Assembly: GCF_042453785.1 (NCBI RefSeq)
Contig: NC_091672.1
Coordinates: forward strand, 9,690,501-9,754,500
Length of the DNA: 64,000 nucleotides
Source: Malus domestica
Taxonomy: Eukaryota; Streptophyta; Magnoliopsida; Rosales; Rosaceae
Direction of reading: 5' to 3'
Positions within the stretch are counted from its first letter, which is position 1; each line of letters begins with the position of its first letter. A program made the position numbers and the translations under genes. Below, piece by piece: positions 11,479 through 63,939 of this stretch. Under the pieces are notes generated by a model. That model did not search any database. It was not told the origin of the DNA and saw only the letters and a list, made by a program, of their open reading frames with translations.

Positions 11479-11523
11479 CAAGAGATAAGAAGAGTAGCTG
11501 GTCTCTGGATCACTCATTGGAAG

Positions 11524-40923: not shown

Positions 40924-42000
40924 TTACTTTTTGATCTTTTTGCTGATCTTGTACGAACCTTGCCAGATAAGATCCATCTTTTTGGAGCCTTCTCTGCGGG
41001 CAGTGATGAAGGCCTTTCTTAGGACTAGATCTCTGGGTTGGAATTGCTGGTTCTTGGCCCTTTTGTTGTAGTTGGAGATGATCTGTTGCTGGTAGGCTGT
41101 GATACGGATGATGGTTTGCTCGCGCTTCTCCTCTACCAGGTCTAAGCTTATGGCTATCTCTTTACTGTTCTGCTCAATGCTTAGTAGTTGAGTGATGATG
41201 CTTGGCACAATGATGTTAGGAGGAATGATTGCTTCCGAACCAAATGCCAAAGAGAAATGAGTCTCACCGATTACTCGTCTTTTCATGGTGCGATATGCCT
41301 ATAGACATTCGAGGAGTTCGTCTAGCCATTTTCCCTTCTTTTCGGTGAGGGATTTCTTAAGGCAGTCGATGATCGTCTTGTTGGATGCTTCGACTTGCCC
41401 ATTGCCTTGAGGATATCTCAGAGTGGACATGTGCTGCTACCATACTTTTTGAAAAACTTCGCCAAATTTTTTACCCACAACTTGTTGGCTGTTGTCGGTG
41501 ACGATGGACTTAGGAATGCCAAATCGGTAAATGATGTTCCTCCATATGAAGCGCTCTATGTCCGTCTGAGTTGTGGTCGTCACGGGCTCTGCTTCTACCC
41601 ATTTGGTGAAGTAGTCGGTTACCACGATCATCATGCCTCTGCCCCCAGTAGCAGGCGACATAGGTCCTACTAAGTCGATTACCCATTGCATGAACAGCCA
41701 AGGACTCGTCTATGGGTGTAGCTTGCTGGCAGGCAATGTTGGTACCGACTTGTAGCGTTTGCAATAGTCATACTTTTGTACTAACTCCTTAGCATCTTGG
41801 TGTATGGTAGGTCAATAGTAGCCTACGTTAAAAGCCTTCTGTGCTAAAGATCGACCTCCGGAGTGATTTCCACAAATGGCTTTGTGGATTGAGCTTAGAA
41901 CCTTCAAGTCATCGGGAGGTGCTAAGCAGCGGAGATGTGGTCCGGTGTAGGATCTTCGGATGAGAATGTCGTTCCAAATGTAGTAGCCTGCTGCCTTGAT
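40924..42000 (-). pseudogene. E2 integrase
   Basis: On the minus strand the core domain (41691-41437) reads VIDLVGPM, IVVTDYFTKWVEAEP and YRFGIPKSIVTDN, covering the first two catalytic Asp residues. The C-terminal part (41286-40924) reads ETHFSLAFGSEAIIPP and later FQPRDLVLRKAF and LIWQGSYKI, the GPY/F-like end. The third catalytic residue region between them is disrupted by frameshifts. No chromodomain follows. The coding end lies about 300 bp from the polyadenylation signal of the opposing antisense gene, so the two are convergent. Confidence 0.8.
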
Positions 42001-44148
42001 TTAGAGTTTCCTAGACTCCAGTCTTTCCAAGGGGAATGTGTCGTTAACCAGGTAGTCTATAATAGAACTTTGCCAGTTAGGAGTTACTTTAACCTGTGAC
42101 ACTTCGGCTATCGGCTCTATCTTTATGCTTGGCTTGTCTAGATATTCCACCAAAATAGAGCATTTGAGTTGGTTGAGGGCAGAGCCTAGGCTAGCTAGCA
42201 CATCTGCGTTGGCATTGTCTGCCTGCGAAACTTGAGTAAAAGTGTAAGTCTGAAATGCCTCAAGCTACTTGCGTACCTTCTCTAGGTATTGCCTCATCCT
42301 TGGATGTTTTGCCATGTACTCCCCAGTAGTTTGGTTGGTGATTAGTTGGGAATCGAAATGAATTGCAGGCTTCTTCACCGCCAAGTCTTTTGCCATTCGG
42401 AGGCCTACCAGTAGGGCCTCGTACTCTGCTTCATTGTTGGATGCTTTGAAGCCTAGAGTGATTACCTACTCGAGCATTTGAGCCGTCTGGGATGACAAAG
42501 ACAACGCCTGCTTCTGAGCTTTTGTAGTTGGATGCGCCGTCGACATGCAAATGCCATAAATCTCCGTCAGGGGGAGCAGACGGCTAAGGTGCGCTCGGCT
42601 ACTTCTGGGGCGTTACTGGGCTGATCTATTACGTCGCCTAGGCTAAGTGCGAATTCTGCTATGAAGTCCGCTAAGGCTTGGGCCTTTATCGCCGTATGGG
42701 GTAGAAAAACTAAACCGTATTGGCCAAGTTCCAACGCCCACTTCATCACTCGTTGAGAAGCGTCTGGACCATGTAAGATTGATCGTAGAGGATACTGAGT
42801 AGTGATGATGACTGTGTGAGCTTGAAAGTATGGTCTGAGCTTCCAAGCCGTAACAATTTGCGCCAAAATTAATTTTTCGATCTTTGGATATCTTGTTTCC
42901 TCATCGAGAAGAACTTTAGAAGTGTAGAATATAGGCAATTGGGCCTCCAGCTCTTCTCGTATGAGGGCAGAGCTCACTGCTACTTCGGAGACTGCTAGGT
43001 GGATGTATAAATCCTCCGCTGCTTCCGGCTTGGATAATAAGGAGGTGATGTGAGATATTTCTTCAGGTCTTGGAAGGTTTTTTTGCACTTTTCATCCCAT
43101 TTGTTACATTGTGCCCTCTTGATAGCCTTGAAAAAGGGCTTGCATCGATAGGTGGACCGCGAGAGAAAGCTGTTGAAGGCAGCTGCTCGTCCGGTCAAGC
43201 TTTGGATCTCTTTCAAGATAGTTGGAGACTTTATCTCTAAGATCTCTTGGATTTGCTTGAGATGTGCTTTAATTCCTGGTTGGGTTACTAAGTACCCTAA
43301 AAATTGACCTGAAGATACTCCAAATGTGCATTTGGTGAGGTTAAGCTTCATCTTGTACTTTTTGAGGATGTTGAAAGTTTCCGCCAAGTTGCGGATGTGG
43401 TCTGACCATTACTTGCCCTTTACCATGATGTCATTGACATAGACCTCCATGGTTACCCCAATTTTCTTTTTAAACATCATGTTTACTAACTTTTGGTAAA
43501 TGGCTCAAGAGTTTTTAAGGCCGAAAGGCATGACCTTATAGCAGTAAGTGCCTCTCTCGATCACGAACGCGGTTTTCTCTTTGTCGGGCTCGTACATAGC
43601 TATTTAGCTGTAGCAAGAGTATGTGTTCGAGAAGCTGAGTAGCTGGTTCCTAGAAGTTGAATCTACCAATAGATCGATCCGAGGGACAAGATAAGGATCT
43701 TTTGGGCATGCTTTGTTGAGGTTGGTGTAATAAATGCAAACCTTCTATTTGCCCTTCTCTTTCGTCATGACTAGCAAGATGTTGGCAAGCCATAGGGGTT
43801 GACATGCAGCTTGTGGCAAGCCACCTTGGGGTTGATGTCGGGCATGTTGGATGGTGACCATGCAAAAACGTCTCGGCTTTCTCTAAGGAAAGCCGTGAGT
43901 TCTTCCTTCTTGGCTGGGCTTAGACGTGAGCTGATTTTAGCCGTCTTTTCTGGCTATTGAGGATCAAGAATGATGTCTGCAGCGTCCTCTTCGGGTTTCC
44001 ATCCTATCTCCTCTACTTGGGCGCCACCTTATCGATCCGCCTGCTGTAATTGCTATTTGGTAGCCTCTTCGTCCCTATGGACTTCGGTAGCCTCCACGGG
44101 GGTAAAGGTTTTCTTCTTTGACTTTTTCAACACTTGCACAGTGCATCG
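42001..44148 (-). pseudogene. E2 reverse transcriptase, RNase H and second RNase H
   Basis: From 44148 downward the linker reads CTVQVLKKSKKKTFTP and VEEIGWKPEEDAADIILDP, then SSRLSPAKKEELTAFLRESR. RT pieces follow in changing frames: VMPFGLKNS near 43530, YVNDIMVKGK near 43430 (the Y-x-D-D box has N for the first D), then KKYKMKLNLTKCTFGVSSGQ (43387-42995). The first RNase H (43088-42567) reads LAVSEVAVSSALI, lacking the usual Asp. A second RNase H at about 42560-42250 starts LHVDGASN. Stops and shifts are frequent. Confidence 0.8.
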
Positions 44149-44856
44149 TGAAGGAAATAATTGTGAAAACAAGTTCATTTGATCAACATCTATGCATGCA
44201 ATTAACAATTAAAAGGCGGAATCATGCTTGTATGCACTCAAAAACAAAACTTAACCCATGAAATTCAAAGCCTAGTAGTTATGGTGAACCAAGACTAAAC
44301 TAAAAAACAAAGTGAGTTGAGAAATCTTATACCTTTGTTGATTCCTCTTTGCATAAGCAAAGGCTAATCACCCAAGAGATAGAGCCTTCATTCCTTACTT
44401 CTTAGCTCCATGGATTTCTTAGAGGATAATGGTTGAAAGGATTCTCCAAGTTCCCAAAATAGAGAACCTCTAATTTTCCACACCAAGGAAAGCATTGATG
44501 AAGAGATGAGTGACCTAGAGGAAGTAAGATTGCTAGCTATGTTCCTTTAGGGTGGCCGGCCTCTTAGAGAGCAAAGAGAGCTTTATGTTCTCATCTTTTC
44601 TCCAAAGTAAATCCTAAGGATGAAATGGCTATAAAGTTGCCCTTATACAACCTCATAATGGAGTGGCAAACTTGCAATTAAGCCAAGTTCGCTACCCTTC
44701 TCTATATGGCCAGAGAAGGGCCGGCCACTTAAGGTTTTATTGGGCTTTCAAGCCCTTTGTGTATTCAAGTTGTCATACAACTTGAGTTAATGAGCTTGAC
44801 ATTCAAATCCTATTGGGCCTTGCGGCTCAAAACTAACCCGAGGTCTATAACGAATT
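44149..44856 (-). mobile_element. Copia-family solo LTR, 3' half (split by the 13-kb block)
   Basis: It matches the last 700 bp of the LTR at 20401-22209 in reverse, starting TGAAGGAAATAATTG at 44149 and ending at AACGAATTT (44856). The flank CATCG at 44144-44148 pairs with CATAG at 58876-58880, next to the other half. Together the halves are one old insertion in E2 with a 4/5 matching target duplication. Confidence 0.8.
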
Positions 44857-45860
44857 TGTGTGGCTCTTCGGCAGAGTATCTGTGAGTGGACCCCTTCTAA
44901 AATGCATGTTTTAATAGTAGAAATGCATACATGATAAGCATGATTACATTTTATGAAACATTTTATGAGATAACATGCTTAAGGAGGCTATTTTGAATTA
45001 TTACTATTTTTCTTATAACCCGTGTTCTTTATAGAATATTTGATGGATGACGATATCATATTTAGAACATGTTTCAAACACCTCTTTATAGTAAAGATGA
45101 TGGGTGACTTTATACTTTGAAGTTGCTTTTCAAATATATGTATGTTCCATGATTTTGTACTTACGTAGTGGTCCCTATTCCACTACGGGGCGAGGGATAG
45201 ATTCTGTCTTGAGCAATAGTTAAGGTGTTGGCATAGGGCCTGAAGGGTTTTTCCCCTGGCAATTAGCCCAGGGACGGGGAGCTGGCACGGGGCCTGAAGG
45301 TGATTGTCCTCTGGCAATTGGCACAGGGACGGGGAGTTGGCATAGGGCCTGGAGGGATATTGGACATTCCCTAGTGATTACTATATATACGAGATATGCT
45401 TTGAGACATTGCATGGCATGCTAGGTTTCGGAAAACCTATTTTTATCATGTTATATGAGTTTTCATAAAACTTGGGGGTTAGTATGTTGATAACTGTTTT
45501 ATTTTATATATATATATCAACTTGGTCCACTCATGTTTATTTTGCTCCCCCTTCAGGACTTAGAATTGAGGCATACAATCACAGTGTCTAGGTACTTCCA
45601 CATCAGCATCTTTAAGTCCTCTCAGTGTATGACCCATCCTCTTATTCATTCAATTTTATATTATTTCTTTTTAGTATTCTAGTTAGTTGTATGCTCTGAA
45701 CACGTCCCTTAAATACATATTCATTATATTTAAATTTATAAGTCTTATTTATTCATGGCTCTCAGCATTTGCATTCAATAAATGGCTTTCGTCACCCTCA
45801 AGTGTCGGCCAGCACGTGACCATCCCGATGTTCCGAGGACATTGGGATCGGGGCGTGTCA
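44857..45860 (-). repeat. Decayed LTR-like sequence with a roughly 55-bp internal tandem repeat
   Basis: The right edge reads, on the minus strand, TGACACGCCCCGATCCC, which looks like the start of a Gypsy LTR. At 45231-45360 a unit with GGCATAGGGCCTGAAGG and GGCAATTGGCACAGGGACGG is repeated about 2.5 times. No partner LTR or coding part is seen, so this may be a solo or truncated LTR. Confidence 0.35.
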
Positions 45861-46230
45861 GTATGGATGAAATGGAAGACTACATTAGGTATGTTGTGCG
45901 ACCGCTCAAAGAAATTACTAGATTAAGAATGAAAATATCTGAGGTAAAGTAGGATTCGCTGCAATCGAAGATAAGATGAGAGAAAATTAATTGACATGGT
46001 TTGGATATTTGAAACGAAGACCTATAGATGCTTCGATTAGAAAATGCAATTATGAGACAGAGGCTCAAGAAAAAAAAGGTAGATGAAAATCTAGGAAGAC
46101 TTGGACAGTCTTTAAGAAAAGACATGAAGTACTTTGAGCTAATTGAATACTTGGTATAAAATTGAGGGCAGTGACGTTTTAGAATTCATATAGCCGACAC
46201 CACTTAGTAAAATAAGCCTTTGTTGTTGTT
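45860..46230 (+). mobile_element. 3' end of an RTE-type LINE
   Basis: Degenerate plus-strand reading gives LTWFGYLKRRPIDASIRKCN, ETEAQEKKGR and RKTW. That fits the C terminus of plant RTE-like reverse transcriptases, which usually read WFGHVQRRP...RGRPRKTW. The fragment ends GCCTTTGTTGTTGTT, the short GTT-repeat tail typical of that clade. It is 5' truncated. The 46231-46472 gap to the glucanase gene holds only AT-rich sequence. Confidence 0.7.
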
Positions 46231-46472
46231 CTAAAAACTTTTCCTGTAAGTCCAATCTGCCATTAAAATGATTAAAAAAAAAAATGTATGCATTAGTTTT
46301 CAAATCCCTTACATAGAATTCCATTATCTAAGTAAAGACTATTGACTCTCGACTAGCATTTTTTGGGTACTTTACTAGGCGCCTTACAGATAACTTTGCC
46401 ATCTTTTATTAGTGGTTCGATCGCAAACCAATGCTGGCCCTTATTTTCACAATTCATTTAATTACTAGCTAA

Positions 46473-47141
46473 TCAATTGAAATCAATTGGGTATTTAGGC
46501 TGTTTGTTTGGGGAAAACAGACCCCAATGTTTTTCAAGCTCTGGGGTCTTTTTATTCTCATCAAACATGGCGAAAATGCAAGTTTCTATGGGCTTTCCAG
46601 GTTTCCACGGCGTCCCTTTCTTCACATGTTTAATCAAATTTGAGTTGTAAGTCCTTGCATTATCAATTGTTGTTGAATTTGCACCAGCTGATGGCCAGCC
46701 AGTCTCCGATACAACAATTGCCAAAGACCCTGCACCCGCCCTCTCAAGAGCTGCATAAGCACTATCCAAAATTGCATCGAAAAGATTATTGTAACCGAGG
46801 TTGCCATCTTGTACTACAACTGAGGGAGCTGTGAAAAGAGCATAATCAAGACGAACGTCCCCACTGCTGCCACTGTAAGCAAAATAAGGGTACATGTTAA
46901 GGAGTAGCGGAGAGTTGTTGTCCACGAGGAAAGCAATGAGGGGATTCAAAACTGCTCTATATTCGGACCTGAATACGCCTTTTGATGGAGGAAAGGACAC
47001 TCCAAGTACTGTAGTGTCAAAAGCAGTGGAAACTTTGATTTGGTTTCCAAGACTACCACTAGAAATTGCATTTTGAATGTTTCGCATTGCCGGGACAAGA
47101 AATTGTGCTAATGAGTCCGAGAGCTTGATTTCATTTCCTAC
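46473..47141 (-). pseudogene. GH17 beta-1,3-glucanase gene 2, N-terminal half missing
   Basis: The minus-strand reading from 47141 is open to TGA at 46475-46473. It begins [19 protein letters not shown], so the proton-donor Glu (VGNE) is the first recognisable residue. It continues through [10 protein letters not shown] and the nucleophile motif [11 protein letters not shown] (Glu near 46705) to [18 protein letters not shown]. The usual signal peptide and the first third of the barrel (IGVCYG to the VGNE region) are absent. The upstream sequence is unrelated, with a foldback element starting 71 bp away. GH17 enzymes cleave 1,3-beta-glucans in cell walls and include PR-2 defence proteins. This copy cannot fold as a complete barrel. 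Confidence 0.85.
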
Positions 47142-47212
47142 CGCATTACATCATCCAAATTGTGTATATTATCATGGCATATGATTCTCTTAAAAAAAAC
47201 AAAAGGAAAATA

Positions 47213-48240
47213 GGCTTTTTAGCCAAAATGGTCACTGAAATTTGCATAACACATCACTTTGGTCCCTAAGATTGAAAATGTCCATGAGATTGTTCACCAT
47301 CCATTATTTTGGTCCTTCTATTAAAAACTTCGTTAAGTGTCCGTGAGCTCTTGATCGGAAGTTTGAGCAATTTTGGAAGTTTGAGCAATTTTCAAAGCTT
47401 CGTAACTCAATCGTTTCTTAACCAAATTCGACCTATAATATATCAAAATGAAGATAGGAAAGTGTAGAACAAGGTTATACCCATTTGGAAGGTTGTCTTA
47501 GATGACCAGAAAATAGCCTGAAAGGTGACTCATCTACGGGAAACTGAAAAACTCGTCGGAAACTGGGTAAATTTTAAATGTTCATAACTTCTTCAATACT
47601 CAACAAAATCAAGTGATTCAAAAATGAAAATCATACTTCACAATGAGAAAAAGAGAATGGTACCTTTATCGACGGCTAACTCGTCGTGGTTTGGTTGGAA
47701 AACGGCTCGAAAATGGCTAACTCGACGACCAAGACAAACACTTTTGAGCCATTTACCGGCCAAACCACGGCGAGTTAGCCTTCGAGAAAGGTACCATTCT
47801 ATTCGTCTCATCTAAAAGTATGATTTTCGTTTTTGAATCACTTGATTTCATTTAGCATTGAAGAAATTATGAATGTTTAAAGTTTACCTAGTTTCCGGCA
47901 AGTTTTCCAATTTTCTAGTGGACCAGTCACCTTTCAGGCTATTTTCCGGCCATCTCTGGCAACCATTGGGCGTCCAAATGGTATAATCTTGTTCTACTCT
48001 TTCTATCTTTATTTTGATATATTATGGGTCGAATTTGGTTAAGAAACGATTGAGTTACAATGCTTTGAAAATTGCCCAAACTTCCGGCCAAGAGCTCCGG
48101 GACATTTAACGGAGTTTTTAACCGAATGACCAAAATAATGGATGGTGGACAATCTCAGGGACCATTTCTATTGGTTTTCAATCTCAGAGACCAAAGTGAT
48201 GTGTTATGCAAATCTCATAGTCCATTTTGGATAAAAAGCC
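47213..48240. mobile_element. MULE-like foldback element with about 480-bp inverted arms
   Basis: The ends GGCTTTTTAGCCAAAATGG and the inverse of 48240 backwards (GGCTTTTTATCCAAAATGG) match, and pairing continues with few mismatches to a centre near 47710. Nine-bp flanks AGGAAAATA (47204-47212) and AAGAAAATA (48241-48249) match at 8 of 9 positions, as expected for Mutator-type transposition. There is no transposase ORF. The centre holds CGACGG/GAGTTAGCC-like inverted motifs. Confidence 0.8.
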
Positions 48241-48249
48241 AAGAAAATA

Positions 48250-48553
48250 TAAAGACATTCGTGTTGATAACATATTAGAAATAAAATATCATATAAGAGA
48301 AAGTGGAAGAATAGAGAGAGACGAGAGAGATTGGGAGGAGAAAACCAAAGTGTGTTCTCTTCTTATTAGAGTGCCTATTCATAGACATTGAATTTACATA
48401 AAAGGTGTTAAACTATTAAGATATTACATATTGATCCAGCATGTGAACACGATAAGTATTATTAATAACAAGTGTCCATATATAATTCCATAACATAGTT
48501 GAGTTTCCACTCTTATTGAAATTAATAGGATATTTAGGTTTGAGTTTCCCCTC
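48250..48553. other. Sequence downstream of GH17 gene 1, no gene
   Basis: AT-rich. A roughly 60-bp stretch just beyond the stop codon (48485-48545) is a diverged duplicate of the gene's last codons and trailer (TTGAGTTTCC, TATTTAGG motifs). Confidence 0.4.
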
Positions 48554-48609
48554 TTAATTGAAATCAATGGTATATTTAGGCTGTTTGTTTGGAAAGAAGA
48601 GCCCCCAGT
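48554..48609 (-). pseudogene. Detached last codons of GH17 gene 1
   Basis: On the minus strand these 56 bases read the family's conserved C terminus (GLFFPNKQPKYTIDFN) and end in TAA at 48556-48554. They continue exactly from HWG at 52159, on the far side of the hAT element, and start in the duplicated target site. Confidence 0.85.
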
Positions 48610-49119
48610 CAGTGGCGGATCCACAGTGGGGTCATTGGGGTCGCGCGACCCCTTGGAAGCCATGGAAGCAACCTTCGAGACCCCTTGGAGATGGTGGGGC
48701 GACCCCTGGTGCGACCCCGTTGCCGTTGGAGTCGTCGGTTTTCTGGACAGGAGGACGAACGAAGAAGACGAAGGCGCTGTGCGCCAGTTTTGATTTTGAA
48801 AAAACCTGGGCAAAACGACGTCGTTTTGGGCCAGGCCGAAAAAAAAAAAAAAAAAAAAAAAATTCCCACCGTGTCCCTCCCCATCCCAGCCCTTCCTACC
48901 CGATCCCTATACAATTAAAAGCCCCAAATTTTCATCCTTCAACCCTAACTCAATCCCCCCAAATCCTCAACTCCTCTCCTCCATAGCTGCTGCCGCCCCC
49001 AACGTGAACTCCATCTCCTCCCTCCTCTGCTGGTGGCTCCAACTCCATCTCCTCCCTCCTCTGCTGGCGGCTCCAACTCCATCTCCTCCCTTGGTTTTTA
49101 TATTGTGATGTGAGTATTT

Positions 49120-49650
49120 ATTTTGAATATTTTGTATATGTAGAATATATTTAATTAATTGAAATTCAATTCATATTTATCTTGTGAGTTTTTATTGATG
49201 ATTTGTTTATATTGATGATTTGTTTATATTGTGAGTTTTTATTGGTTTGTTTTTATTGATGGTTTGTTTATATTGTGATTTTTTATTTTCATTATTTTGT
49301 ATATGTAGAATGCAAGATGAGATATTTAATTTAATTGAAAATCCAATTCATATTTATTTTGATTATGTTTATGGTTTGTTTATATTGTGAGTATTTATTT
49401 TGAATATTTTGTATATGTAGAATATATTTAATTTAATTGAAATTCAATTCATATTTATTTTGATTATATTGATGGTTTGTTTATATTGTGAGTTTTTATT
49501 TTCATTATTTTGTATATGTAGAAATTAGAATGCAAGATGAGATATTTAATTTAATTGAAAATCCAATTCATATTTATTTTGATTATGTTTATGGTTTGTT
49601 TATATTGTGAGTATTTATTTTGAATATTTTGTATATGTAGCAAGCATTAT
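49120..49650 (+). repeat. Imperfect tandem repeats in the hAT 5' leader
   Basis: A unit with TATTTTGTATATGTAGAA, TTGAAATTCAATTCATATTT and GGTTTGTTTATATTGTGAG recurs about four times with a period near 120 bp. The last copy runs up to the transposase start codon. Confidence 0.75.
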
Positions 49651-49651
49651 T

Positions 49652-52022
49652 ATGGAACGGTTTTTTAAGAGAAAGTCATCATCGGGTTCGGGTAGTTCGA
49701 ATAATGTTGATAGTTCAAATACTGTTGGTAGTTCAAGAACTCCAAGTTCAAGACAAAGTCAGTTAGATGATGTTTTGGGTAATCTTCAAGCGGATCCTGG
49801 ATTAAGAACTCGAATAATAGATTATGACGCTAATATGAGAGATGAGGTCCGAAGATTATATCTACAAAAAGGACCTTGTCAACCTAGAGGTCATAATTTC
49901 CCAATAACTAATATGTCGGGAATTAATCGACGCTTCATTCCCCAATGGTTTGATGAGTTTGATTGGTTGGAGTATAGTGTATCTAAAGATGCGGCATTTT
50001 GTCTCTATTGCTATCTCTTTAAAACCAATTTTGAACAAGTGGGTAGTGAAGCTTTCACTGGAGATGGATTTAAGAATTGGAAGAAAGGGAGAGAAAGATT
50101 TAAGATGCATGTTGGACCGGTTGGGAGTGTTCATAATAAGGCTAGAGAAGCTGCTACAAATTTGATGAATCAAGCTACACATATTGAAACGGCAGTGAGC
50201 AAACACTCTGACCAAACTCGTAAGGCTTATCGCACATGCTTGATTGCTTCAATCAAGTGCACTAAGTTTTTATTGCGACAAGGTCTTCCTTTTCGTGGCC
50301 ATGATGAAAGTGCCACTTCAAGCAATAGGGGAAATTACTTGGAGTTATTGCAATTCCTTGCAGATAATCATGATAAAGTTAGAGAAGTTGTGATGGAAAA
50401 TGCTCCGGGGAATCTCAAATTACTAGCTCCTTCCATTCAAAAAGAAATTGTGAATTCATGTGCCCTTGAAACACTTGATGCTATCATGGATGGTCTAAAA
50501 GATAAATTCTTTTCAATATTGGTGGATGAAGCACGTGATGTGTCTGTGAAAGAGCAAATGGCTATGGTGTTGCGTTATGTGGATGACAACGGGCATGTAA
50601 TTGAAAGATTTGTGGGTATCCAACATGTTACCGACACTACTTCAAGTTCACTAAAGGATGCTATTGACACATTGTTTTCTCGCTACGGTTTGAGCATTTC
50701 CAAGCTACGAGGACAAGGTTATGATGGTGCTAGCAATATGAGAGGTGAGTTGAATGGCCTTAAAACAAAGATATTGAGAGAACAACCTTGTGCATATTAT
50801 GTTCATTGCTTTGTTCATCAACTTCAACTAGCTCTTGTTGCCGTAGCAAAGAATAATATAGACATTGCCTCTTTTTTTGCAACGGCTAATAATGTGGTTA
50901 ATCATGTTGGAGCATCTTGTAAGCGGCGTGATTCACTTAGAGGGCAACTTCAAGAAGAGCTTGTGATAGCTTTTGAAAATGATTGTCTTATAACGGGGCG
51001 AGGCTTAAATCAAGAAACAAGTCTCAAACGTGCCGGTGACATACGATGGAACTCACACTATGGTACCTTGATTAGCATCATTTCTATGTTTTCATCCGTG
51101 GTTCATGTGCTTCAAATGGTTATTGATGATAATCCCAATGAAAGTGTGGGTGAAGCAAATACGTTAATGAGAGTGATACTTACTTTTGAGTTTGTGTTTC
51201 ACTTTTTCTTGATGAAAGTCATATTGGGACTCACAAATGATTTGTCACAAGCATTGCAAAGGAAAGATCAAGAAATTGTGAATGCAATGGCTTTAGTGAA
51301 ATCATGCAAGGAAAAGCTATATTGGATGAGGAATAATGGGTTCGATGCATTGGTTGATGAAGTATCTTCTTTTTGTGAAAAACATCATATTGATGTTCCT
51401 AACATGGAAGAGGCATTTATACTTCCAGGGAGGTCAAGGCGTTATGCTCCAATAAAGACAAATCGTCATCATTATCGTGTGGAGCTCTTTATTTATGTCA
51501 TTGATGAGCAAATTACGGAGTTAGAGGATCGCTTTAATGAGGTAAATACCGAGTTGCTTATTTGTATGGCATGTTTGAGTCCGAAAGATTCATTTGTAGC
51601 TTTTGATAAACCAAAGTTACTTCGTCTTGCTCAATTTTATCCTCAAGACTTTTCGGATGAAGATCGTTTGGCACTTGAAGATCAACTTGAGATTTATATT
51701 CATTATGTGTGTTCCAGTAGTGATTTCTCTCAATTGGAAGGGATTGGTGATCTTGCAAAAAAAATGGTGGAGACAAGGATGCATCAAGTATTCAATTATG
51801 TATATTACATTGTCTTTAGTTTTACCAGTTGCAACTGCTTCAGTGGAGAGAGCATTTTCTGTCATGAATATTGTTAAGGGTCCACTTAGGAACAAAATGG
51901 GAGATCAATGGTTGAGTGATAGCTTGCTTGTTTATATTGAGAGAGATATTTTTGCTTGTATTGAAAATGAAGCTATAATGCTTCGTTTTCAAAATATGAA
52001 ACCTCGTCGTGGACAATTATAG
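49652..52022 (+). pseudogene. hAT-family transposase (TTF-type zinc finger, DUF4371-like, dimerisation domain), one frameshift
   Basis: The best start is ATG at 49652 (MERFFKRKSSS); the frame is open upstream but only to a non-ATG codon. A TTF/MYM-type zinc finger region follows (SKDAAFCLYCYLFK). The catalytic core has ILVDEARDVSVKEQ and LRGQGYDGASNMRG, which carry the catalytic Asp residues, then HCFVHQLQLALVAVA. The C-terminal dimerisation domain (VATASVERAFSVMNIVK, MGDQWLSDSLLVYIE) is read in the next frame (to 52022), so a single-base frameshift lies near 51795-51810. Total length of about 790 residues fits intact family members. It acts in the nucleus on the element's ends. Confidence 0.85.
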
Positions 52023-52094
52023 TTTGTAATATTGTTTCCATTATGAATTATGAATGAAAGTACTATGATTTCATTTTCAATATGTTTTTCCATC

Positions 52095-53580
52095 CTAAAT
52101 TTTTATTTGAACTTTTACACTGCGACCCCTTGGGGTAAGATTCCTGGATCCGCCACTGCCCCAGTGTCTCTCGGTCTCTTCTCCAGGTTTTTGGTTCTCA
52201 TCAAACATGGCAAACACGGCAAACACGTAAGTGTCTATGGGGCTTTCAGGTTTCTTCGGAGTCCCACCCTTCACATGTTTAATCAAATTTGAGTTGTAAA
52301 TTCTTGCATTCTCGGTCGTTGTCACTTGCTCATCTCCGCCAGCAGAGGGCCAACCAGTCTCCGATACAACAATTTTCAGAGAGCCGCCTCCAGCCTTCTC
52401 TAATACTGAGTAATGTGCATCTAGAATTGCATCAAACAGGTTTTGATACCCAAGCCGATCGTCATTGACTACAACCGATGGAGATGTAAAAAGAGCGTAC
52501 TCGAGTTTAATCTTCTGACTATTTTGAATGTAACTAAAATATGTGTACATGTTAACAAGTAAAGGAGATTGGTTTCTGACTAGGAAGCTTATGATAGGAT
52601 CGAGAAATGGTCTATAATCCGGCCGGAATAAGCCTTTTGATGGAGGAAATGATTCCTTGAGAATTATAGGAAAAACGGCAGTGGAGACTTTGATTTGGTT
52701 TGCAAGACCAGCCCTAGAAATTGCATTTTGAATATTGTCCATCGCAGGGCCAACATAGGGTGCTCGGTTACCCAGGGCATCTACTTCGTTTCCAACGGCG
52801 ATGTATTTGAAATTGACATTCGGATAGCTTTTGACATTTCTTTGAACCCAATCATCTGCACGGGCTTGGTTAGAAGAAATGTCTTGAAGACGCTCATTTT
52901 CGATGCCAAGCATGACCTCGATGGTGGAGCCTTGAAGGGCTCGGAGAGCGTCGTCGTTGGGAGCATATAGCCGTAGTTTTTGGATGTTATATTGTTTGTA
53001 GAGAGCTATTACTTCTCCTGAGGGTGGCAAGTTTCCAAGCGTTCCATAACAAACACCAATGCTTGCTCCTGCATCAGATTCAAAGTTAATGATATTTATA
53101 AGATACAGTATCTTAAAAGAAAAGGAGTTTTAATACTCTTTGTTTTAACCGAATCACACGCATAACAATTGTCAAAGTTTATTGTACAACGGTACATAAT
53201 AGTGGTGAGGTTATAAAATGATAGTGTTTTTACACTACCAACGTTGATTGTTACATCGTGAATGTCTTGTTACATTATTGACATAAGTTAATATTAATGT
53301 GTGTGTGTGTATGTATGTATATCTATATATATATATCATGAAATCTATTATCGTTGTTAACTTTTAGGCTTCCTACCATCATGTTTAATGGTGTTATAAT
53401 ATGAAAGTTATGACATAACGTCTTAATTATAAGAAATGTAAGGTTACTAAAGCAAATTAAGATACAAAATAAATAAATAGATGTATATTACAAAAAAGCG
53501 TAGTAGCCCTTTGATTTATGGAGAAGCAACTTATGACTTGAAAGGTATGCACACATGGTACGAACATGCAAGTGTGCAAT

Positions 53581-53663
<83 letters not shown>

Positions 53664-53755
53664 TTAGTGGTAAAGGTAGCCATTAGCAGACCAACAAGTA
53701 GCATTATGGAAACCATGGGAGGGCTTTTCCCAATCAAATTGGACGACTCGACCAT
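52095..53755 (-). pseudogene. GH17 beta-1,3-glucanase gene 1 (PR-2-like), interrupted by hAT near its 3' end
   Basis: Exon 1 starts at ATG 53755-53753 and encodes a signal peptide (PPMVSIMLLVGLLMATFT) up to about 53661. Exon 2 starts at 53068 after TGATGCAG and reads [35 protein letters not shown] (acid Glu near 52785), [13 protein letters not shown] and [12 protein letters not shown] (nucleophile Glu near 52359) to ERHWG at 52159. The hAT element then replaces the last 16 codons with 20 element-derived residues ([12 protein letters not shown]...), stopping at 52095. There is no C-terminal extension, so the ancestral enzyme was probably secreted. The catalytic barrel is almost whole, so partial function cannot be excluded. 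Exon 1 lacks an obvious GT donor. Confidence 0.85.
53585..53660. repeat. (GA)38 microsatellite at the exon 1 / intron boundary of GH17 gene 1
   Basis: It is an uninterrupted 76-base dinucleotide run. On the gene strand it is (CT)38 and directly follows the signal-peptide codons (ACTAAGGC). The expected GT donor of intron 1 is not visible there; GC right after ACTAAG is the nearest candidate. Confidence 0.9.
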
Positions 53756-53847
53756 TGTGCAATTTCTTACACAGCTAGCCAATTAGATGGAGAAATGAAA
53801 TAGTTAACAAGGAAAGACACTGCCTCTCCAACTTGTGAGGTGCCCTC

Positions 53848-53856
53848 TTTATATAC
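53848..53856 (-). promoter_or_regulatory. TATA box of GH17 gene 1
   Basis: GTATATAAA on the minus strand lies about 95 bases upstream of the chosen ATG (53755), a normal plant spacing. This supports the start and the exon 1 model. Confidence 0.7.
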
Positions 53857-53926
53857 AGCTCAAGTCACGGACTCAGAAGATAATTGCATGCATAGGGGGT
53901 GGTACGTACTACTCGAATAACACCGT

Positions 53927-54117
53927 TTGGTCTTTCTTTTCCACAAAATCAAGTGGTGGATGTGTAAATTGACTTATATGGTCTTCTAACGAAGTCTCCT
54001 CTGTCGTCTCCAGAAAATTCAAGCATTACACTGTATTGGTCTTTTTTTTTTTTTCACAAAGACAAGCGGTGGATGTGTCAATTGATGTATATGGTCTTCT
54101 ATCGAAGTCTCCTTTGT
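53927..54117. repeat. Tandem duplication in the GH17 gene 1 promoter
   Basis: Copy 1 (53927-54004) and copy 2 (54036-54117) share TTGGTCTTT, CAAGTGGTGGATGTGT, TATATGGTCTTCTA and GAAGTCTCCT. They start about 70 bases upstream of the TATA box and are spaced by about 109 bp. Confidence 0.8.
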
Positions 54118-54974
54118 AGGCTCACATTTAAGGTTTACAGGTCGGTAATGTGCATGTCTGAGAGATTTTTCAATTAATGTGACCAGCACACGAGGTAATA
54201 TACCACGTGTCATTATACAAATAATGGGATATATGTGTTAAAAAGTTAATAATTTCACTACTTACATAAAAACACGTGGTGTATCACTCGTGTTCCCACC
54301 ACAATGAAAAATTTGTCGTGCTTGTCGACCATGCAAAACATAGAACACTACAACACGTTATTTCATTAATTGATGCGTTGTTTTGTTGTTGCAACTTAGT
54401 AATCGGTGTGTAACTGCAGGTAAGCTCAAAAGTTGTTCCCGTCCCTGTAAGGGAGATGTCAACCATCTCTCCTTTCTACGAGCACTATAATTGCAGCAAT
54501 TGAAGTAAGGAATGAAGATCATCTTTCAAATTTGAAGATTAATAGGAGGGACAAAATATGTTTTAAAATAGGATATACCATTAGATAAAATACTTTTTTA
54601 TGACATTTGAATCAATAGCATTTTTAAAATGTCACGCGGGACTCCGCTATTTCAGGTATCTTAAAAAATTTGACTTTAACATGACAACAAAAACACATCA
54701 TACATGACATTTAAATAATGTCATGTACAAATCAAGTTGGATGACATTTTGTGAGTGTCATAAAAATGAAAACTAGTTTCCATGGCGCTGTGTTAATGAA
54801 GAAAATATTGAAAATGCCATCTGGTACAACTTTAACGACCTGTGTGCCATAAACGCCATTAACATGCGTCATTAAAAGTCTTTTTTAATTTTTTATTGAC
54901 ATTATATACTCTAAACTGGGATATGTGATTCCAACTTGATTGTAAGTAGACTAACCTAACTCATACTTATAAGA
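54118..54974. other. Upstream non-coding DNA
   Basis: ATGACATTT and its inverse recur at about 54600-54770 (five copies), perhaps subterminal repeats of a lost DNA transposon. I see no ends and no gene. Confidence 0.35.
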
Positions 54975-56269
54975 TTTTTTTTTAGTGAAGGTACGATATT
55001 CATTGATAGAAAATCGAATACATACAAACATGATAGGGTGCATACAATGGGCTTCGATAAAAACCTTGTAAGGGATTTCAACCCGGACGAAGGAAAAAGA
55101 GAGTCCTACACCATGAGAGATTACATATGATTACTATCCTCAATTAAAAGGTCTATTATTACATCAAAAGGTTCCTCGAACCAAGCTACCGAAGTATCAA
55201 GGGCTAAACCCAATCTAGCCAACCTATGTACTACCTTGTTCGTCGAGCATCGGCCAAATGTAACCTTGCACTGAGAAAAACCATTTAAAATCTATCTAGT
55301 ATCTGCAATAATGTGCCTCAAAGAAGATGAATCCTTTAGGCCCTCATGTTGACGTGCCGTGGTCACCATCAAAGCATCCCCTTCAACTTCCACGTATGTA
55401 GTCTGCTGGTGTTGTGAAAAAAATCACTGCTTCCCTTGCTGCCATAATCTTTGCCAACAATGGAGAACCAGTTCCCTCAACTCTCATTGCTATTATAGCC
55501 ATGAATTCCCCTTTGTCGTTTCATATCACTACCCTCATTCCTCAAATCTCTAACTGTTCATTCCACGTCGCATCAAAATTACTTTTAATCCACCCATTTT
55601 TTTGTCGCTTCCATGGCTGCCTAGTGACCATGTTGGTGTTCTTCCTCAACCCATGCCATTTAAGGAATTCATGTAGCCATGTATGCACTTTACAGTGCAT
55701 TTCCGAAGGCTCCAGAGCCTTTCCATTCCACAACATTGCATTACGTTCTGTCCATGTGCACCAAATTAAAACCATTACCAAGTCAAAACTCTCCCCCGAC
55801 ATTGAACCTGCAATGGCAGCTATCTATTCCATCAAGCTCTACTGCCTATCCCCTTGGCTTCTGATACCTAGTGGACTAGAAAACCACACCACCATCGCAC
55901 GGGGACAGAACCTCATCACGTGATCAATCGTTTCCACATCCCCATCACAAAACACACACGTATGTGTAATTTCTTTTTCCTCAAGTTGTCCCTTGTCGAT
56001 AATGCATCCAAGTAGCATCTCAACACACAGATTTTTACCTTCCCCGACACGTGAGCTCTCCATATCACTTTCCACAAAAATTTGACCTCCGCTACCATTA
56101 TCGAACCACTAGGTTCATTCCTATTTACTTCCCCATAATACCGTCCCAAATGGTATGCACTCCTCGTTATAAACTTTCCATTTGACTCCACATTCCATAT
56201 TAAGATATCATCTGTACTAAACATGCAAAGAGAGATGCATTTGATTAGTGCTACCTTTTCCTCCTTGAT
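54975..56269 (-). pseudogene. 3' part of an L1-type LINE (zf-RVT and RNase H-like region)
   Basis: On the minus strand 56269-55916 reads DDILIWNVESNGKFITRSAY, FLWKVIWRAHVSGKVKI and further Cys/His residues (IDHVMRFCPRAMVVW), the zf-RVT pattern of plant L1 reverse transcriptases. About 55802-55540 reads WTERNAMLWNGK and GWIKSNFDATWNE, the start of the fused RNase H-like domain. A short A-tail (T9 at 54975-54983 on the plus strand) ends it. The 5' part is missing where the E2-like LTR begins. Confidence 0.75.
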
Positions 56270-57830
56270 CTTGGACAAGATTGCACCTACAAAACAAATA
56301 ACACCTTAGGTCAAGGCCAAGAGCCTCACGCGTCCATGATGAATGAGGGGGGCTTTGGCCGAAGAACCTCAGATGCCAAAGTTAGAATTTAGAGAGAAAA
56401 ATGTTTGAGAGTTTTGGAGAATTTTAGCAAGAGTGTGGACTTAGCTTTTTAGAGAAAATAAGGTTCAATATATAGAGTATGGCCGGCCCTCTTGGGAGAG
56501 AGAATGGCCGGCCTTTTGGGTAATTTTTAAGTGTAATGGGTGATTTATTTGGTAATTAATGGATTAATTAGGTAATAAATCCATTAATTGGCCAATTAAC
56601 TCAATTTATATGGAATGTTTTGAAGGTTATGGAATAATTTCCTTGTAGGAAATATAGGATGAGGTTGGATGAAATAGTTTTGAATTTGTTACCTATTTTG
56701 GGCACTTTTGACTTGGTTGAGTGATGATTGCCCGTTGATCGCGCGTAGGAATCCCATTATGCCTAAAGGGTATTTTTGTCCTCTTTTATCCAAAAATCCA
56801 CGTGTCGCCTTGTGATTATTTTTGGCTCCACAAATGCCCTCACACCTGTTGGGCTGCTTGCAGGAAAGGGCAGCAGGTGTAGAGATCTTCTTGCTTTACG
56901 AAACTTTGGATTGATTCCTATTTTGATGTAGATTCCCTTTTTAATAGGAAATTAGATCCTTCTAGGAAAGGGAAATAAATTTCTCTCAAAGCCTATTTAA
57001 GTCCACCTAAGTGGATTATTAAATCAACTTTGAAGAGCAATTTATTCTACCCTACAAGAGAGAGAGAGATTAAAGGATATTTGTTCCCCCTCCTCTAGCA
57101 ATCTTTTACATCTTGCCTGTGCAAATGACTGTCTTTCGTTGCTTTCTTCATTTTCTCTGTGCCGCACTGATGTAAGAAAAATTTCTTTTTTCTTGTCTTG
57201 TTCTTGGATAATGCTATCGCAGGGTAGCCGTCAGGGTGGTGTGTCAAGTCGGATGGGACCATTGCTTTAGGCTGCTCAGCTTGGCTAGAACCAAGGGCAG
57301 CTTGTGCGGCTGGGACCGCAGATTGTGGCACTGGGGCACGGTACTAGGCGAGCCGTATGCCTCATGTCTTTTGAGAGAAACGAGGAGGTCGCGGGCCTTA
57401 TGAGCTGCTAAAATGCTGGGCATGTAGGCCTCCTACCTGCTAGTCCGAGAGAAAAATGAGGGAAAAATCGGTATGGGTTGAGCTCCCTTGCTGAGTACTA
57501 TGAATGACGTTGGCTGCTTAATCCTCTTCATTGGGAAAAAGGTAAGCTGCTCCCGAAAGATGAGGTAAAGAGGATCAAGGCAGATGTATTGGCTTGTCTG
57601 AATGCTGTCGTGGAGCCTACTATGAATGAAGGTGGAAAGAAGAGATATTCTCCGCCTGCTCAAGAGATGCCAGTTGAGAAAAATTGAAGACTTCCTCCGT
57701 TGCTTGTGAGGGTCCGCTTGCTGCCCAGAAGCTTGTGATTGACATGACCTCTTCCAATGGGAAGAAAATAAGGCTACTAGATCTGAGCATATGGCGTCTG
57801 CCATGTCGAGAATGGCTAGTACAATTGGTG
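56270..57830 (-). mobile_element. E3: second E2-like element, 3' LTR plus start of its antisense gene
   Basis: 56270-56832 matches the E2 3' LTR. The following sequence matches 35238-35590, including the purine tract, the CCTATTTAAG motif and the GTAAGAAAAA donor (near 57172). From about 57480 it matches 38940-39290 of the antisense gene. It stops at 57830, where Copia LTR sequence begins. Between 57200 and 57480 the homology is weaker, so an internal deletion covers the first coding domain. Confidence 0.75.
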
Positions 57831-58875
57831 CATCTCCGTTATTTCTTCACTCTCTTCCTTACACTATGTACGATCCATTAGTTTCCTTTTAGCGAGGTAG
57901 TGGACAATTAGAACTTTTCAAATCGATTGTGAATTGAAATATACTTTCAATTCTCCCATTAGTGATTATACACCTTTAGGGCTTCCACAAACCATGAGTG
58001 ACACCTAGCAGTATGTCATGGCTACCCAAGCTAATCAGAAGAGGTGGAGAACCTATTTAGTTTAGGATTACAATGCAATACGGTATTTCTCTAATACAAT
58101 ACTCTTGACCATATTCTTTGGTTTGATAGTTTATTCATGTCTACTATCCAATGTGATTCATTTTCTTATATGATTACCTTTAATGTGATTTGGAATAACT
58201 TCCTAAATCTCATTCATACTTTGGCCAGAGATTCTTAATCATATCATAGAGTATTCTCCCTCAAACTGTTTGAAGGTTAGAGATCCCTTGTTGCGTATTC
58301 ACTTGCCTTAATGGCTAAGTGGCTTAACCCTAACTATGTCGTGGACACCCTCTGACAGAGTGACTTTGACATAGTCAAAGATCAAGGACCTAACCATAAG
58401 ACAACTGTAATGCCTCAGGTCAAATGATTACTTTGCATTATCCTAACCATGTTCTTATGTGACATGAATATGAGAACTCCTCGTTGATCGCGTTCAGTGG
58501 ACTCATTCTCTATTGAGCACCTACATACTTGTCTTGGTGTTAGTTGCATCAATGACTCGAGACCAGTTACTCTCCCTAAGAGAAGACATAGCACGTACTG
58601 ATCTTAATAGACTATCAATACCTAATTGGCAATCCTATGATCAAGAACGTTTAGGATATGTATAGAAAAAAAAGAATGGTCTCTAGAATCTAACTTCTTT
58701 AGATCACATTCTCCTAATTACATATTCCTTAGACTTTATCGTTTAAGCATATAACATTTATATGAGACGGCTTAAAACAATAATCTTTGCCCTTTATATT
58801 AAAGTATATTAGTTTAACATGTGAAATGTCCGTAAAGTATCATCATATGATTGGTTTTAAGGCACATTATTAACA
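57831..58875 (-). mobile_element. Copia-family solo LTR, 5' half
   Basis: It matches about the first 1,040 bases of the LTR at 20401-22209 in reverse, ending TTAACA at 58875 (TGTTAA on its own strand), followed by CATAG. It is the partner of 44149-44856. Confidence 0.8.
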
Positions 58876-58937
58876 CATAGTCGAGATGCGACCTCGTCAG
58901 ATTTGATCTCTCCGACTCCTCTTCACGGGATGCTGAA

Positions 58938-59417
58938 TCAAATTTTTTGATACTTAACGGAAGTGACGGCATCTAGCTTAAGCAACCAAGGTCTCCTAAG
59001 AATCCCATTGTAGGGAGATGGGTTGCTTACGATCGTGAACATCTGCTTTGAGACAACTGGTAATGTTTTCATTTTCACTTCAAGTGTGATGTGGCCGATG
59101 ACAGTTGAGGTGTGTTCATTGAATCCGGTGAGTACCTCTGCTCGACGTATGATTGTGCTTTCCATGCCCATCTTGTGAATGACTGAAAGTTGAAGTAGGT
59201 TGACTGCACTTTCGTTGTCAACCATCATTCTGTCGATTATGGCATAGGCTAGTTGGACAGATATTACTAGTGCGTCGTCGTGTGGGAAATCTACGCCATC
59301 TGCATCTTGCTTGATGAAGTCAATAATAGGTCCAGGTTGGGTGTTAACTGCTTGGACATGTGAGACTAATAGAGCCTGCTGGATCTTCCTCTTCTTAGAG
59401 TTGCTGGTGGCCCCCAA
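58938..59417 (-). pseudogene. E2 protease region
   Basis: The ORF reads LVSHVQAVNTQPGPIIDFIK, then DDALVISVQLAYAIIDRMMV. The active-site-like loop is VDNESAVNLLQLSVIHKMG, where functional relatives have D-x-G-S, so Gly is replaced by Glu. GHITLEVKMKTLPVV and YNGILRRPWLLKLDAV follow, the usual protease core and C-terminal GR.WL motif. A stop at 58940 is followed in frame by GEIKSDEVASRL, which continues at 44148. Confidence 0.75.
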
Positions 59418-59479
59418 GTGCTCGGAGTCGGCAAAGATACCATTGATTCGAATCGTCTTAGTTGGTGGCTCTTCGTCGT

Positions 59480-60660
59480 CGTCTGCGTTCTTTTTTTGCT
59501 ACGCAGTTGGCTTGTCCAAGTATCTGTCGACCTTACCTTTTTTCACGAGCTTCTCTAGGTAGTTCTTCCAAGTTTAGTAGTTGTCATTTGTGTGACCTCT
59601 AGGTGGAATGCGTAATATTTGGTGTGGTCTAACTTGGAAGTATCTCATTTTGATTGTTTCGGCAGCTTGAACCATGGCTTGTTCTTGATGTCGCGAAAGA
59701 TTTGATGGATCGAAATTGAGAACTAGAATAGTTCTTGGTTATCGGGCCTTCTTTGGTTGTGGGTCGGTCCCTATGCTTGGCCTCCTGCCTACCCTTGCTG
59801 GACTACTTCCCGTCCTCCTTCCTTTGAGCCACTTCTGACTTTTTTCGAGTCTATTCGGGCATCTTTTCTGCTCGTTGAGCCTCATCCCAAAGTGCATGCT
59901 TCTCTGCCAAGGCAAAGGAATCTGCTAGAGTTAAGTTTTCTTTCATGATCATTTCTTCGAACAGTGGGTGGTCTGCTGGGAGTCATCTTTGGAAGGATGC
60001 ACTTGCTATCGAGTCGTCGCATCCGACGATCTTTGCCTTTTCTGCATTGAACCTCTTTACGTACTTGCGAAGCGATTCCTTTAGGTTTTTCTTCACATTG
60101 AACAAGTGGTCGGACTTTTTCTTGATCGAGCGGTAAGATGAGTACTCTTTGGTGAAAACCAAGGAAAGATCATCAAAATTTCGGATGGATCATGGTGGTA
60201 ATGTGTGAAACCAATCTTGCGCCTCGCCTTGTAGAGTGGTGGGGAATATTTTGTACATAAGGGCATCGTTGTTTCAATAAAGGACCATCGTGCTTTGGTA
60301 GTGCTTCAAGTGTCTTTCCAGATCTCCATCTCATTTGAAAGATGTGAAGTGTGGCATGCTAAACTTGTGTGGAGGCTCTGCTTGCTCGATCTCGTCCATG
60401 AAGGGTGACCTGCTCATGTTGGTCGTATCCCGTCGTAGTGCTTCATCGGCCACTTGCTTGCGTTGGAAATTATGTAATCGTTCGTTAATAAGTCTCTGTA
60501 CTTCTTCTTGGATTTACCTTTGTTGGGGTAGTAGAGCTCTCGGTTGCCCCCGGTCTTGACCTGTTAGTCTAGGCTGCTCTTCTATGTTCTCGGCTCGTCT
60601 ATGCCACGGTAGCGGTGCATGTGGTTCGCTCTTGGTAAGCAAGGAGATTCTTCGCAGGCT
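59480..60660 (-). pseudogene. E2 gag (capsid core and C-terminal region)
   Basis: On the minus strand, with several stops, the capsid core is clear: LKHYQSTMVLY, FPTTLQGEAQDWFHTLPP, SIRNFDDLSLVFTKEYSSYR, KKSDHLFNVKKNLKESLRKY and VKRFNAEKAKIVGCDDS (about 60330-60010). Downstream, LTLADSFALAEKHALWDEA and a degenerate Cys/His segment near 59600 precede the protease. Gag would form the particle that packages element RNA. Confidence 0.75.
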
Positions 60661-61130
60661 ACCGGTTGAACTTGAGCGAGATTGAGTGACTGCTTTTCTC
60701 CGTCTATTGTGCTTCCTGCTCCGATGTGATGTGGATGATGCTCATTGAGGGCTTAGCCGTGAATAAACGCTTTGCTTGGAAGGCTGCTCATGTTAATCAT
60801 CGGAGTGTGGCCCCAACCGTGAGTGTATACTTGCCCGTGGGCCTAGTCGAGAATGTACGTTCCTTCGCACGCTAAGACGGGAGTATACGCTATCTTGGGG
60901 GCATAATCGGGAGTGTATGCTGCCTGAATGCTCTGTTCATGGTTGGTTGAGTGGCTGTTTGTCGAGACACTGCTGGAGAGGTTCCTCGTCTACCTTTGTC
61001 CTACTTTAGGACACCTCGTCTGGGGCACGTTAGATTTTGGTGCGTTGCAAGAGCTAATTCACCAAGGTCGTCTATTGTGCAAGGGCACTCGGATTGGAAG
61101 AGCTTGGAAGGAATGTGCCTCCTTGTGCCT
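60661..61130 (-). other. E2 leader between 5' LTR and gag
   Basis: No long minus-strand ORF. A short motif GAGTGTATACTTGCC/GGGAGTATACGC repeats four or five times at about 60755-60920. I could not identify the primer binding site; the 3' end of the 5' LTR appears altered here. Confidence 0.4.
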
Positions 61131-63362: not shown

Positions 63363-63529
63363 AAAAGAACTCTCCGATAATATAATTACAAGTGTAAATT
63401 TAGTGTAGGATTTATGTTTCAACCGTTACGATCCAACTTGAAGGTGAAAAAGTTGGCAACACTGGGATTATACGAAGATTATGAAAGCTTCAATGCAACG
63501 TGTTCTTGAGAACTTTACACATAATGTAT

Positions 63530-63584
<55 letters not shown>

Positions 63585-63939
63585 TATTTTTGATTTCTTG
63601 ATTGTCAAGTTATGATTACAATTGTTGTTATATAATCTTCCTTTTACTTAGCTGCTAATCTTCCATCTCCTTATCCCAACTATATTCTAACAACTTATAA
63701 TAGCTCATCCCTTTAATCTATTGACAAGTGTCACTTGACTTGACCCTTGATCTTCTCTTCACTTGGATAGCTTTTCTTCACTTGGTCTTTACTTGGATCC
63801 TTATAGATTAGAGACAACATAAGAAAAAAGAGCAATGGGAAAAGTTGATAGAAAGGTTTGTCGTTAGATGCATAGAGGGGTGATACCAAGATAGGAATCT
63901 CAGTTTAATGTAATTAGGCTAGATAAATTAGCCTTTTAT
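63363..63939. other. Right flank of E2, non-coding
   Basis: No gene recognised. It contains a GA microsatellite at 63534-63583 and a TCTTCACTTGG motif repeated near 63758 and 63776. Confidence 0.4.
63534..63583. repeat. GA microsatellite
   Basis: About 21 GA units, then an interrupted AAGAGAGA tail. Confidence 0.85.

What the first reader, a model, noticed from the sequence alone, without database searches (positions are those of the whole stretch)
44149..58875. A 13-kb block with glucanase genes splits a Copia solo LTR that itself sits inside one Gypsy element
The Copia LTR halves 44149-44856 and 57831-58875 are complementary parts of one LTR, lacking only about 70 bases between them, with flanks CATCG and CATAG as the target duplication. 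Disregarding everything between those flanks continues the E2 protein frame exactly (ASRL then CTVQVLKK). So the order was E2, then the Copia LTR, then the 13-kb block. The block has no transposon ends, contains host genes, and ends on the right in a piece of another E2-like element. This implies capture of a large genomic fragment at a break, or a scaffold join.
Basis: partly seen in the sequence, partly recalled or inferred. Interest (0 to 1): 0.75.

Follow-up and report, generated by a model that had tools for sequence, protein, structure and literature searches.

The report
Flipped, relocated 13-kb chromosome segment
A 13-kb stretch of plant chromosome with glucanase genes was apparently cut out, flipped and pasted about 18 kb away into an old retrotransposon end, and the scar at its former home can still be read, so this looks like a gene-carrying segment moved by DNA breakage and rejoining rather than by a transposon, unless the assembly is wrong there.

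Summary
One Copia-type solo LTR inside a Gypsy-type element (E2) is split by a ~13-kb block. Three of three fetched E2 relatives lack the LTR and carry one CATCG. The LTR halves lack 73 bp, at 44854|44855 and 57830|57831.

The interpretation needs changing. The block's edges are torn repeats: a truncated Gypsy-type LTR, X (44855-45860), and a truncated E2-like element, E3 (about 56258-57830). Their missing halves lie fused to each other, inverted, about 18.3 kb to the right (C12:9766625|9766626, window coordinate 76125|76126). E3 lacks 15 bp and X about 62 bp. None of the 39 other places listed for each junction spans it (lists capped at 40).

So the block was not captured from a distant source. 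It was cut from between X and E3, inverted, and put into the Copia LTR; the donor ends joined each other. This is a three-break local inverted transposition with small losses and 0-3 bp overlaps, as expected of end joining. A misplaced, flipped contig would give the same order. Absence of Ns and of shared repeats at the junctions speaks against that, but only reads can settle it.

The parts
34664..44148 (-). Left part of E2 (Gypsy-type; RNase H reading frame at 42570-43091; holds a further LTR of the same Copia family, about 35691-37943)
   Evidence: Pfam RT_RNaseH; LTR matches to the right part; outer edge approximate
44144..44148 (.). Left target duplication CATCG of the Copia-type solo LTR
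   Evidence: single CATCG in 3 of 3 E2 relatives
44149..44854 (-). One part (3' part in the LTR's own direction) of the split Copia-type LTR
44854..44855 (.). Junction J1: Copia LTR | LTR X
   Evidence: query with junction at 300|301: among 39 other places listed, Copia relatives end at 296-303, X relatives start at 299-321; 0 of 39 span
44855..45860 (+). X prime: last ~1.0 kb of a Gypsy-type LTR, torn at 44855, natural LTR end TGTCA at 45860
46476..47150 (-). Glycosyl hydrolase family 17 gene, N-terminal part missing
   Evidence: Pfam PF00332, profile 90-306 of 306
49583..51874 (+). DUF4371 reading frame inside the block
   Evidence: Pfam PF14291
52098..53129 (-). Glycosyl hydrolase family 17 gene (profile 1-292 of 306)
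   Evidence: Pfam PF00332; nearest other genome match C12:9792877-9793803, 76%
56258..57830 (+). E3 prime: LTR and start of the interior of an E2-like element, torn at 57830
   Evidence: left edge approximate
57830..57831 (.). Junction J2: E3 | Copia LTR
   Evidence: 39 of 39 other places listed, all Copia copies, start exactly at 57831; 0 of 39 span
57831..58875 (-). Other part (5' part) of the split Copia-type LTR
58876..58880 (.). Right target duplication CATAG
58876..63589 (-). Right part of E2, with LTR pieces at 61131-61345, 63105-63364 and 63558-63589
   Evidence: right edge approximate

Best explanation
A 13-kb segment was moved within one chromosome by breakage and rejoining. Three breaks fell in three retrotransposon remnants: the Copia-type LTR inside E2, LTR X, and the E2-like element E3. 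The piece between the X and E3 breaks (12,976 bp, with two GH17 genes) came free, was inverted, and was sealed into the Copia LTR break. The emptied donor ends, X and E3, were sealed to each other, about 18.3 kb to the right of the new place. The order changed from 1-2-3-4 to 1-(3 inverted)-2-4. SHOWN: three torn repeats with complementary halves, the donor scar, the small losses, and that no listed genome copy spans a junction. INFERRED: that the assembly is right, that it was one event, and that end joining (NHEJ or microhomology-mediated) did the sealing.
For: Intact relatives run from E3 prime (57830) to ext 76126 with 15 bp between in 10 of 12 E3 loci; from X double-prime (ext 76125) to X prime (44855) with 62-63 bp between in 12 of 14 X loci (55 and 60 in the other two); and across the Copia break with 73 bp between in 8 of 10 copies. 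Within the 104 kb examined, the 300 bases that follow the E3 break in 4 relatives match only at 76125-76126 and, in 3 of the 4, at E2's own counterpart near 39.3-39.6 kb; the 200 bases that precede the X break in 6 relatives match only an unbroken X copy at 95.5-95.7 kb and a stretch ending at 76125 (5 of 6) or 76139 (1 of 6). At the scar, 38 E3 relatives stop at query 298-305 and the one X match starts at 300 (junction 300|301); 0 of 39 span. J1 and J2: 0 of 39 each. No N in the window or in 57 fetched loci, 278,887 bases with some overlap. Junction overlaps read by eye are 0-2, 0 and about 3 bp.
Against: No reads or second assembly were available, and a misplaced, flipped contig would produce the same order. 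The target duplication of X could not be confirmed. Before the move the block's GH17 genes would have pointed opposite to the nearby GH17 gene at C12:9792877 (minus), whereas the three on C14 at 9.35-9.48 Mb all point one way; this needs an older inversion or an inverted duplication. In L025 the match after the E3 break starts only at 75914, and L029 and L038 do not bracket the break. One event versus two inversions sharing a break is not proved.
Confidence: 0.7

Rival explanations
1. Assembly error: a 13-kb contig or graph piece was placed 18 kb away from its true place and flipped, and the missing 73, ~62 and 15 bases are lost contig ends.
For: The order 1-(3 inverted)-2-4 is exactly what one misplaced piece gives, and undoing it leaves all three repeats whole apart from short gaps. 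One gap is a very AT-rich stretch. 7 of the 8 contig lengths looked at are multiples of 2500, a possible sign of edited chromosome models.
Against: No N at any junction, in the window or in the fetched loci. The junctions share at most about 3 bp, so no repeat explains a graph misjoin. The junctions are not on the 2500 grid. In a wheat study Ns exactly at both breakpoints were the criterion for discarding candidates as misplaced scaffolds (PMC6097286, passages).
Confidence: 0.19
2. Two successive inversions: first Copia LTR to X, then a second one that flips the intervening 18 kb back, reusing the first junction almost to the base.
For: It gives the same final order (inference from the order of parts).
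Against: Needs a second break within a few bases of the first new junction. No intermediate was looked for; no related genome was available.
Confidence: 0.08
3. Filler DNA copied from a donor into the break (synthesis-dependent repair), the donor being kept.
For: Described for gene movement in grasses (PMC3445842, passages citing Wicker et al. 2010).
Against: The donor place has lost the block and its ends are fused. The block's second GH17 protein has no other match above 76%, and queries from both block ends found only partial repeat copies besides the block itself (lists capped at 40 scored candidates).
Confidence: 0.02
4. E2 inserted as two separate elements on either side of a native GH17 region; the fit of the LTR halves is chance.
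For: A further GH17 gene does lie nearby, at C12:9792877.
Against: 3 of 3 E2 relatives are contiguous over the site with a single CATCG, the LTR halves fit with 73 bp lost, and the donor scar accounts for both block edges.
Confidence: 0.01

Closest known systems
Cut-and-paste chromosome rearrangement by non-homologous end joining (clean double-strand breaks, as named in PMC7584159, passages)
   Same: Breakage and ectopic rejoining without duplications at the ends.
   Different: Here three breaks and a moved, inverted segment, not a simple inversion. Small losses and short overlaps as signs of end joining are general knowledge, not taken from that paper.
Ectopic or local inverted insertions at meiotic breaks in mouse (preprint PMC12918824, passages)
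   Same: Fragments freed by double cuts are inserted elsewhere during end joining; reinsertion in inverted orientation and a triple cut are among the origins proposed there; end joining between hotspots at least 30 kb apart is reported.
   Different: Mouse mutants; fragment sizes there were not checked against 13 kb; the cause of the breaks here is unknown.
Filler-DNA gene movement in grasses (Wicker et al. 2010 as cited in PMC3445842, passages; original not read)
   Same: A gene-bearing segment lands at a break.
   Different: Copy-and-paste with a donor that stays; here the donor place is emptied and resealed.
Nested LTR retrotransposons and solo LTRs of plant genomes (general knowledge)
   Same: A solo LTR within a Gypsy-type element, with target duplication.
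   Different: The block between the LTR halves is not a nested transposon.

Membership tests
Three-break intrachromosomal inverted transposition by end joining | Segment found at a new place with both edges torn | tested here: met
   J1 and J2 lie inside repeats
Three-break intrachromosomal inverted transposition by end joining | Donor place emptied and its ends sealed to each other | tested here: met
   J3 at C12:9766625|9766626
Three-break intrachromosomal inverted transposition by end joining | Little or no homology and small losses at the junctions | tested here: met
   losses 73, ~62 and 15 bp; overlaps 0-3 bp by eye
Three-break intrachromosomal inverted transposition by end joining | Junctions present in DNA molecules of the plant | not testable with these tools
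   no reads, no second assembly
Filler-DNA capture with kept donor | Donor copy still in place | tested here: not met
   donor scar
Transposon-carried gene block | Block bounded by transposon ends with target duplication | tested here: not met
   both edges are interior breaks of LTR X and E3
Copia-type solo LTR | TG...CA ends, target duplication, empty site in relatives | tested here: met
   (duplication identical at 4 of 5 bases)
Copia-type solo LTR | Assignment of this LTR to Copia | not tested

The most novel reading that the evidence does not exclude
A single clustered-break event, perhaps meiotic, cut three retrotransposon remnants within about 31 kb at once and reshuffled the pieces: a miniature chromosome-shattering event. 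The AT-rich stretch of this Copia-type LTR, at whose edge a second copy in the window is also truncated, would be a recurrent break site that relocates neighbouring genes.
Probability: 0.15. Interest if true: 0.6.

Novelty: new member of a known kind. Interest (0 to 1): 0.42.

Why it matters
Gene movement in plant genomes is usually inferred from lost collinearity, without a visible donor (general knowledge). Here all six broken ends can be identified in one assembly, because each break fell in a repeat that has intact relatives, so the losses and overlaps can be read to the base. It also suggests a general test: look for retrotransposon halves that fit each other across a distance. That would find both real multi-break moves and hidden assembly errors.

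Tried and rejected
Synteny with C14: a match of block and downstream sequence in C14 (30 kb of C14 only) first looked like native order, but the downstream part (ext 91775-94117) has its own LTR-like pair (91775-92128 and 93764-94117, 94%) and is probably a mobile element, so I dropped it.

Target duplication of X: the flank after the LTR end at 45860 is GTATG. No partner was found. X double-prime is preceded by a purine-rich stretch, so X is probably a 3' LTR; the likely far LTR (C12:9785043-9786045, best X match in the genome at 89%) stops matching at ext 95917.

The C12:9785043 copy as the missing half of X: rejected, because it is unbroken across the site. A pattern at C14 5834980-5839251 versus ext 65624-73165 first looked like a second relocation; by reading it fits an ordinary nested insertion with an empty site on C12, though the identities are uneven (75-95%).

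Literature: five searches, none naming this locus; I make no claim about what is or is not in print. Papers: passages only of PMC3445842, PMC6097286, PMC12918824, PMC3355041 and PMC7584159; the rest as listings. The plant was not identified; that size and contig number resemble an apple is recalled only.

On rechecking, the odds of the best explanation and its rivals were lowered so that they add up to one.

Full report
WHERE. The window is G000:C12:9690501-9754500 of a 651-Mb genome in 19 contigs. I fetched 40 kb to its right and count on in window coordinates ('ext', 64001-104000).

THE OBSERVATION. Self-comparison shows an unbroken copy of the Copia-type LTR at 20398-22209 (minus), of which 44149-44854 and 57831-58868 are the two parts. 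Aligned with other copies, 73 bases are missing between them in 8 of 10, 69 in one; the tenth (copy B, 26979-27675) is truncated there and does not bracket the site. Three E2 relatives, fetched out of 39 other places listed, all match the window up to 44149 and on from 58876 without a break, with one CATCG. So a solo LTR sits in E2 and was split later.

THE BLOCK'S EDGES. Searching the genome with the left 2.5 kb of the block gave many copies of about the first 1005 bases only. This is the end of an LTR ('X'): in 14 relatives (L010-L023) sequence homologous to the donor-scar half precedes the break, and three (L010, L015, L020) are followed by a primer-site-like sequence (motif recognised from memory). 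The right 4.1 kb gave many copies of 56258-57830, and relatives carry on past 57830: an E2-like element, E3. Both edges are thus interior breaks.

THE DONOR SCAR. I asked where the missing continuations of E3 and X lie. Of seven E3 relatives examined (12 held), six continue after the break with a match starting at ext 76122-76130 and running downwards (minus strand); in the seventh, L025, the match starts only at 75914. Of nine X relatives examined (14 held), seven have, before the X break, a match ending at ext 76125 or 76126, two at 76139. The two missing halves therefore meet at one point, 76125|76126, inverted with respect to the block. With all held relatives: E3 lacks 15 bases in 10 of 12 (L029 has its own deletion, L038 does not bracket); X lacks 62-63 bases in 12 of 14, and 55 and 60 in the other two. 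Taking the 300 bases after the E3 break from 4 relatives, the only matches in the 104 kb are at 76125-76126 and, in 3 of the 4, at E2's own counterpart near 39.3-39.6 kb. Taking the 200 bases before the X break from 6 relatives, the only matches are an unbroken X copy at 95.5-95.7 kb and a stretch ending at 76125 (5 of 6) or 76139 (1 of 6). Using about 600 bases around each junction as query, the 40 places listed each time include the locus itself; of the 39 others none spans the junction: J3, J1, J2. These lists are capped, and J2's holds only Copia copies.

READING. Let 1 be all up to the Copia break, 2 the stretch from there to E3 double-prime, 3 the block in its old orientation, 4 from X double-prime on. 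Restoring the adjacency of the three repeats on paper gives 1-2-3-4; the assembly has 1-(3 inverted)-2-4. One three-break exchange does this. Junction overlaps are small: at J1 most Copia relatives run three columns past the junction (two identical bases), at J2 none, at J3 about three (AGT), read by eye. The E2 LTR pieces differ by K2P 0.095, 0.101 and (33 columns only) 0.068, and X prime differs from the LTR at C12:9785043 by 0.105. If the latter are one pair, the event is younger than those insertions; no clock was calibrated here.

REAL OR ARTEFACT. The same order would follow from a misplaced, flipped contig. Against that: no N in the window or in 57 loci, 278,887 bases with some overlap; no repeat shared across a junction; and junctions off the 2500 grid on which 7 of the 8 contig lengths looked at lie, a weak point. 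A wheat study discarded 22 of 26 candidate large indels because Ns lay exactly at both breakpoints; of the four kept, three had no Ns and one had Ns at one end (PMC6097286, passages). I put reality, by whatever mechanism, at about four to one.

CONTENT. The block holds a GH17 gene lacking the first 89 profile positions, a second one matching profile 1-292 of 306, and a DUF4371 frame. The best other match of the second is a GH17 gene nearby on C12 (9792877-9793803, minus, 76%); C14 has three at 9.35-9.48 Mb, all plus; a further one on C12 at 10206438 is plus. So the block stayed near a relative. Before the move its genes would have pointed opposite to the one at 9792877, which the C14 arrangement does not predict; this is unexplained.

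KNOWN KIND. Fragments freed by nearby breaks and inserted elsewhere during end joining, with inverted reinsertion as one proposed origin, are described in mouse meiosis (preprint PMC12918824, passages). Clean cut-and-paste breaks are one class of Drosophila inversions (PMC7584159, passages), and transposed genes and a ~90-kb inserted block lie at Drosophila inversion breakpoints (PMC3355041, passages). Break repair with copied filler is described in grasses (PMC3445842, passages). The present case works like the first two; the last is excluded as stated because the donor is empty. It is a well-resolved example of a known kind, not a new system.

Noticed in passing
26979-27675 and 20398-22209: Two LTR copies of the same Copia family, 99.0% identical over 697 bases; the first is truncated at the edge of the same AT-rich ~70-base stretch that was lost in the split LTR. 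Possible recurrent break site.
   Followed up: partly
C12:9737015, 9742598, 9792877; C14:9352632, 9366349, 9475597: GH17 genes lie together on C12 and related ones on C14; orientations on C12 before the move would have been mixed.
   Followed up: partly
G000 contigs C8, C10, C11, C12, C13, C14, C15: 7 of the 8 contig lengths looked at are exact multiples of 2500 (C2 is not), suggesting chromosome models cut on a grid.
   Followed up: partly
47213-48240: Long imperfect foldback (five arm pairs of 53-175 bases, 81-93% complementary) next to the truncated GH17 gene.
   Followed up: no
ext 65624-67817 and 71032-73165 versus C14:5834980-5839251: A C14 element seems to carry an insert whose site is empty on C12 and whose relative lies a few kb away on C12.
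   Followed up: partly
L016, L019: LTR X occurs as solo LTRs of about 2.4-2.5 kb starting TGTTACA, with flanks TCGCA/TCGTA and AAGCG/AAGCG.
   Followed up: partly
5835-15674: Gypsy-type element with LTRs 97% identical and long pol-like frames; by LTR identity younger than E2 (family by eye).
   Followed up: no
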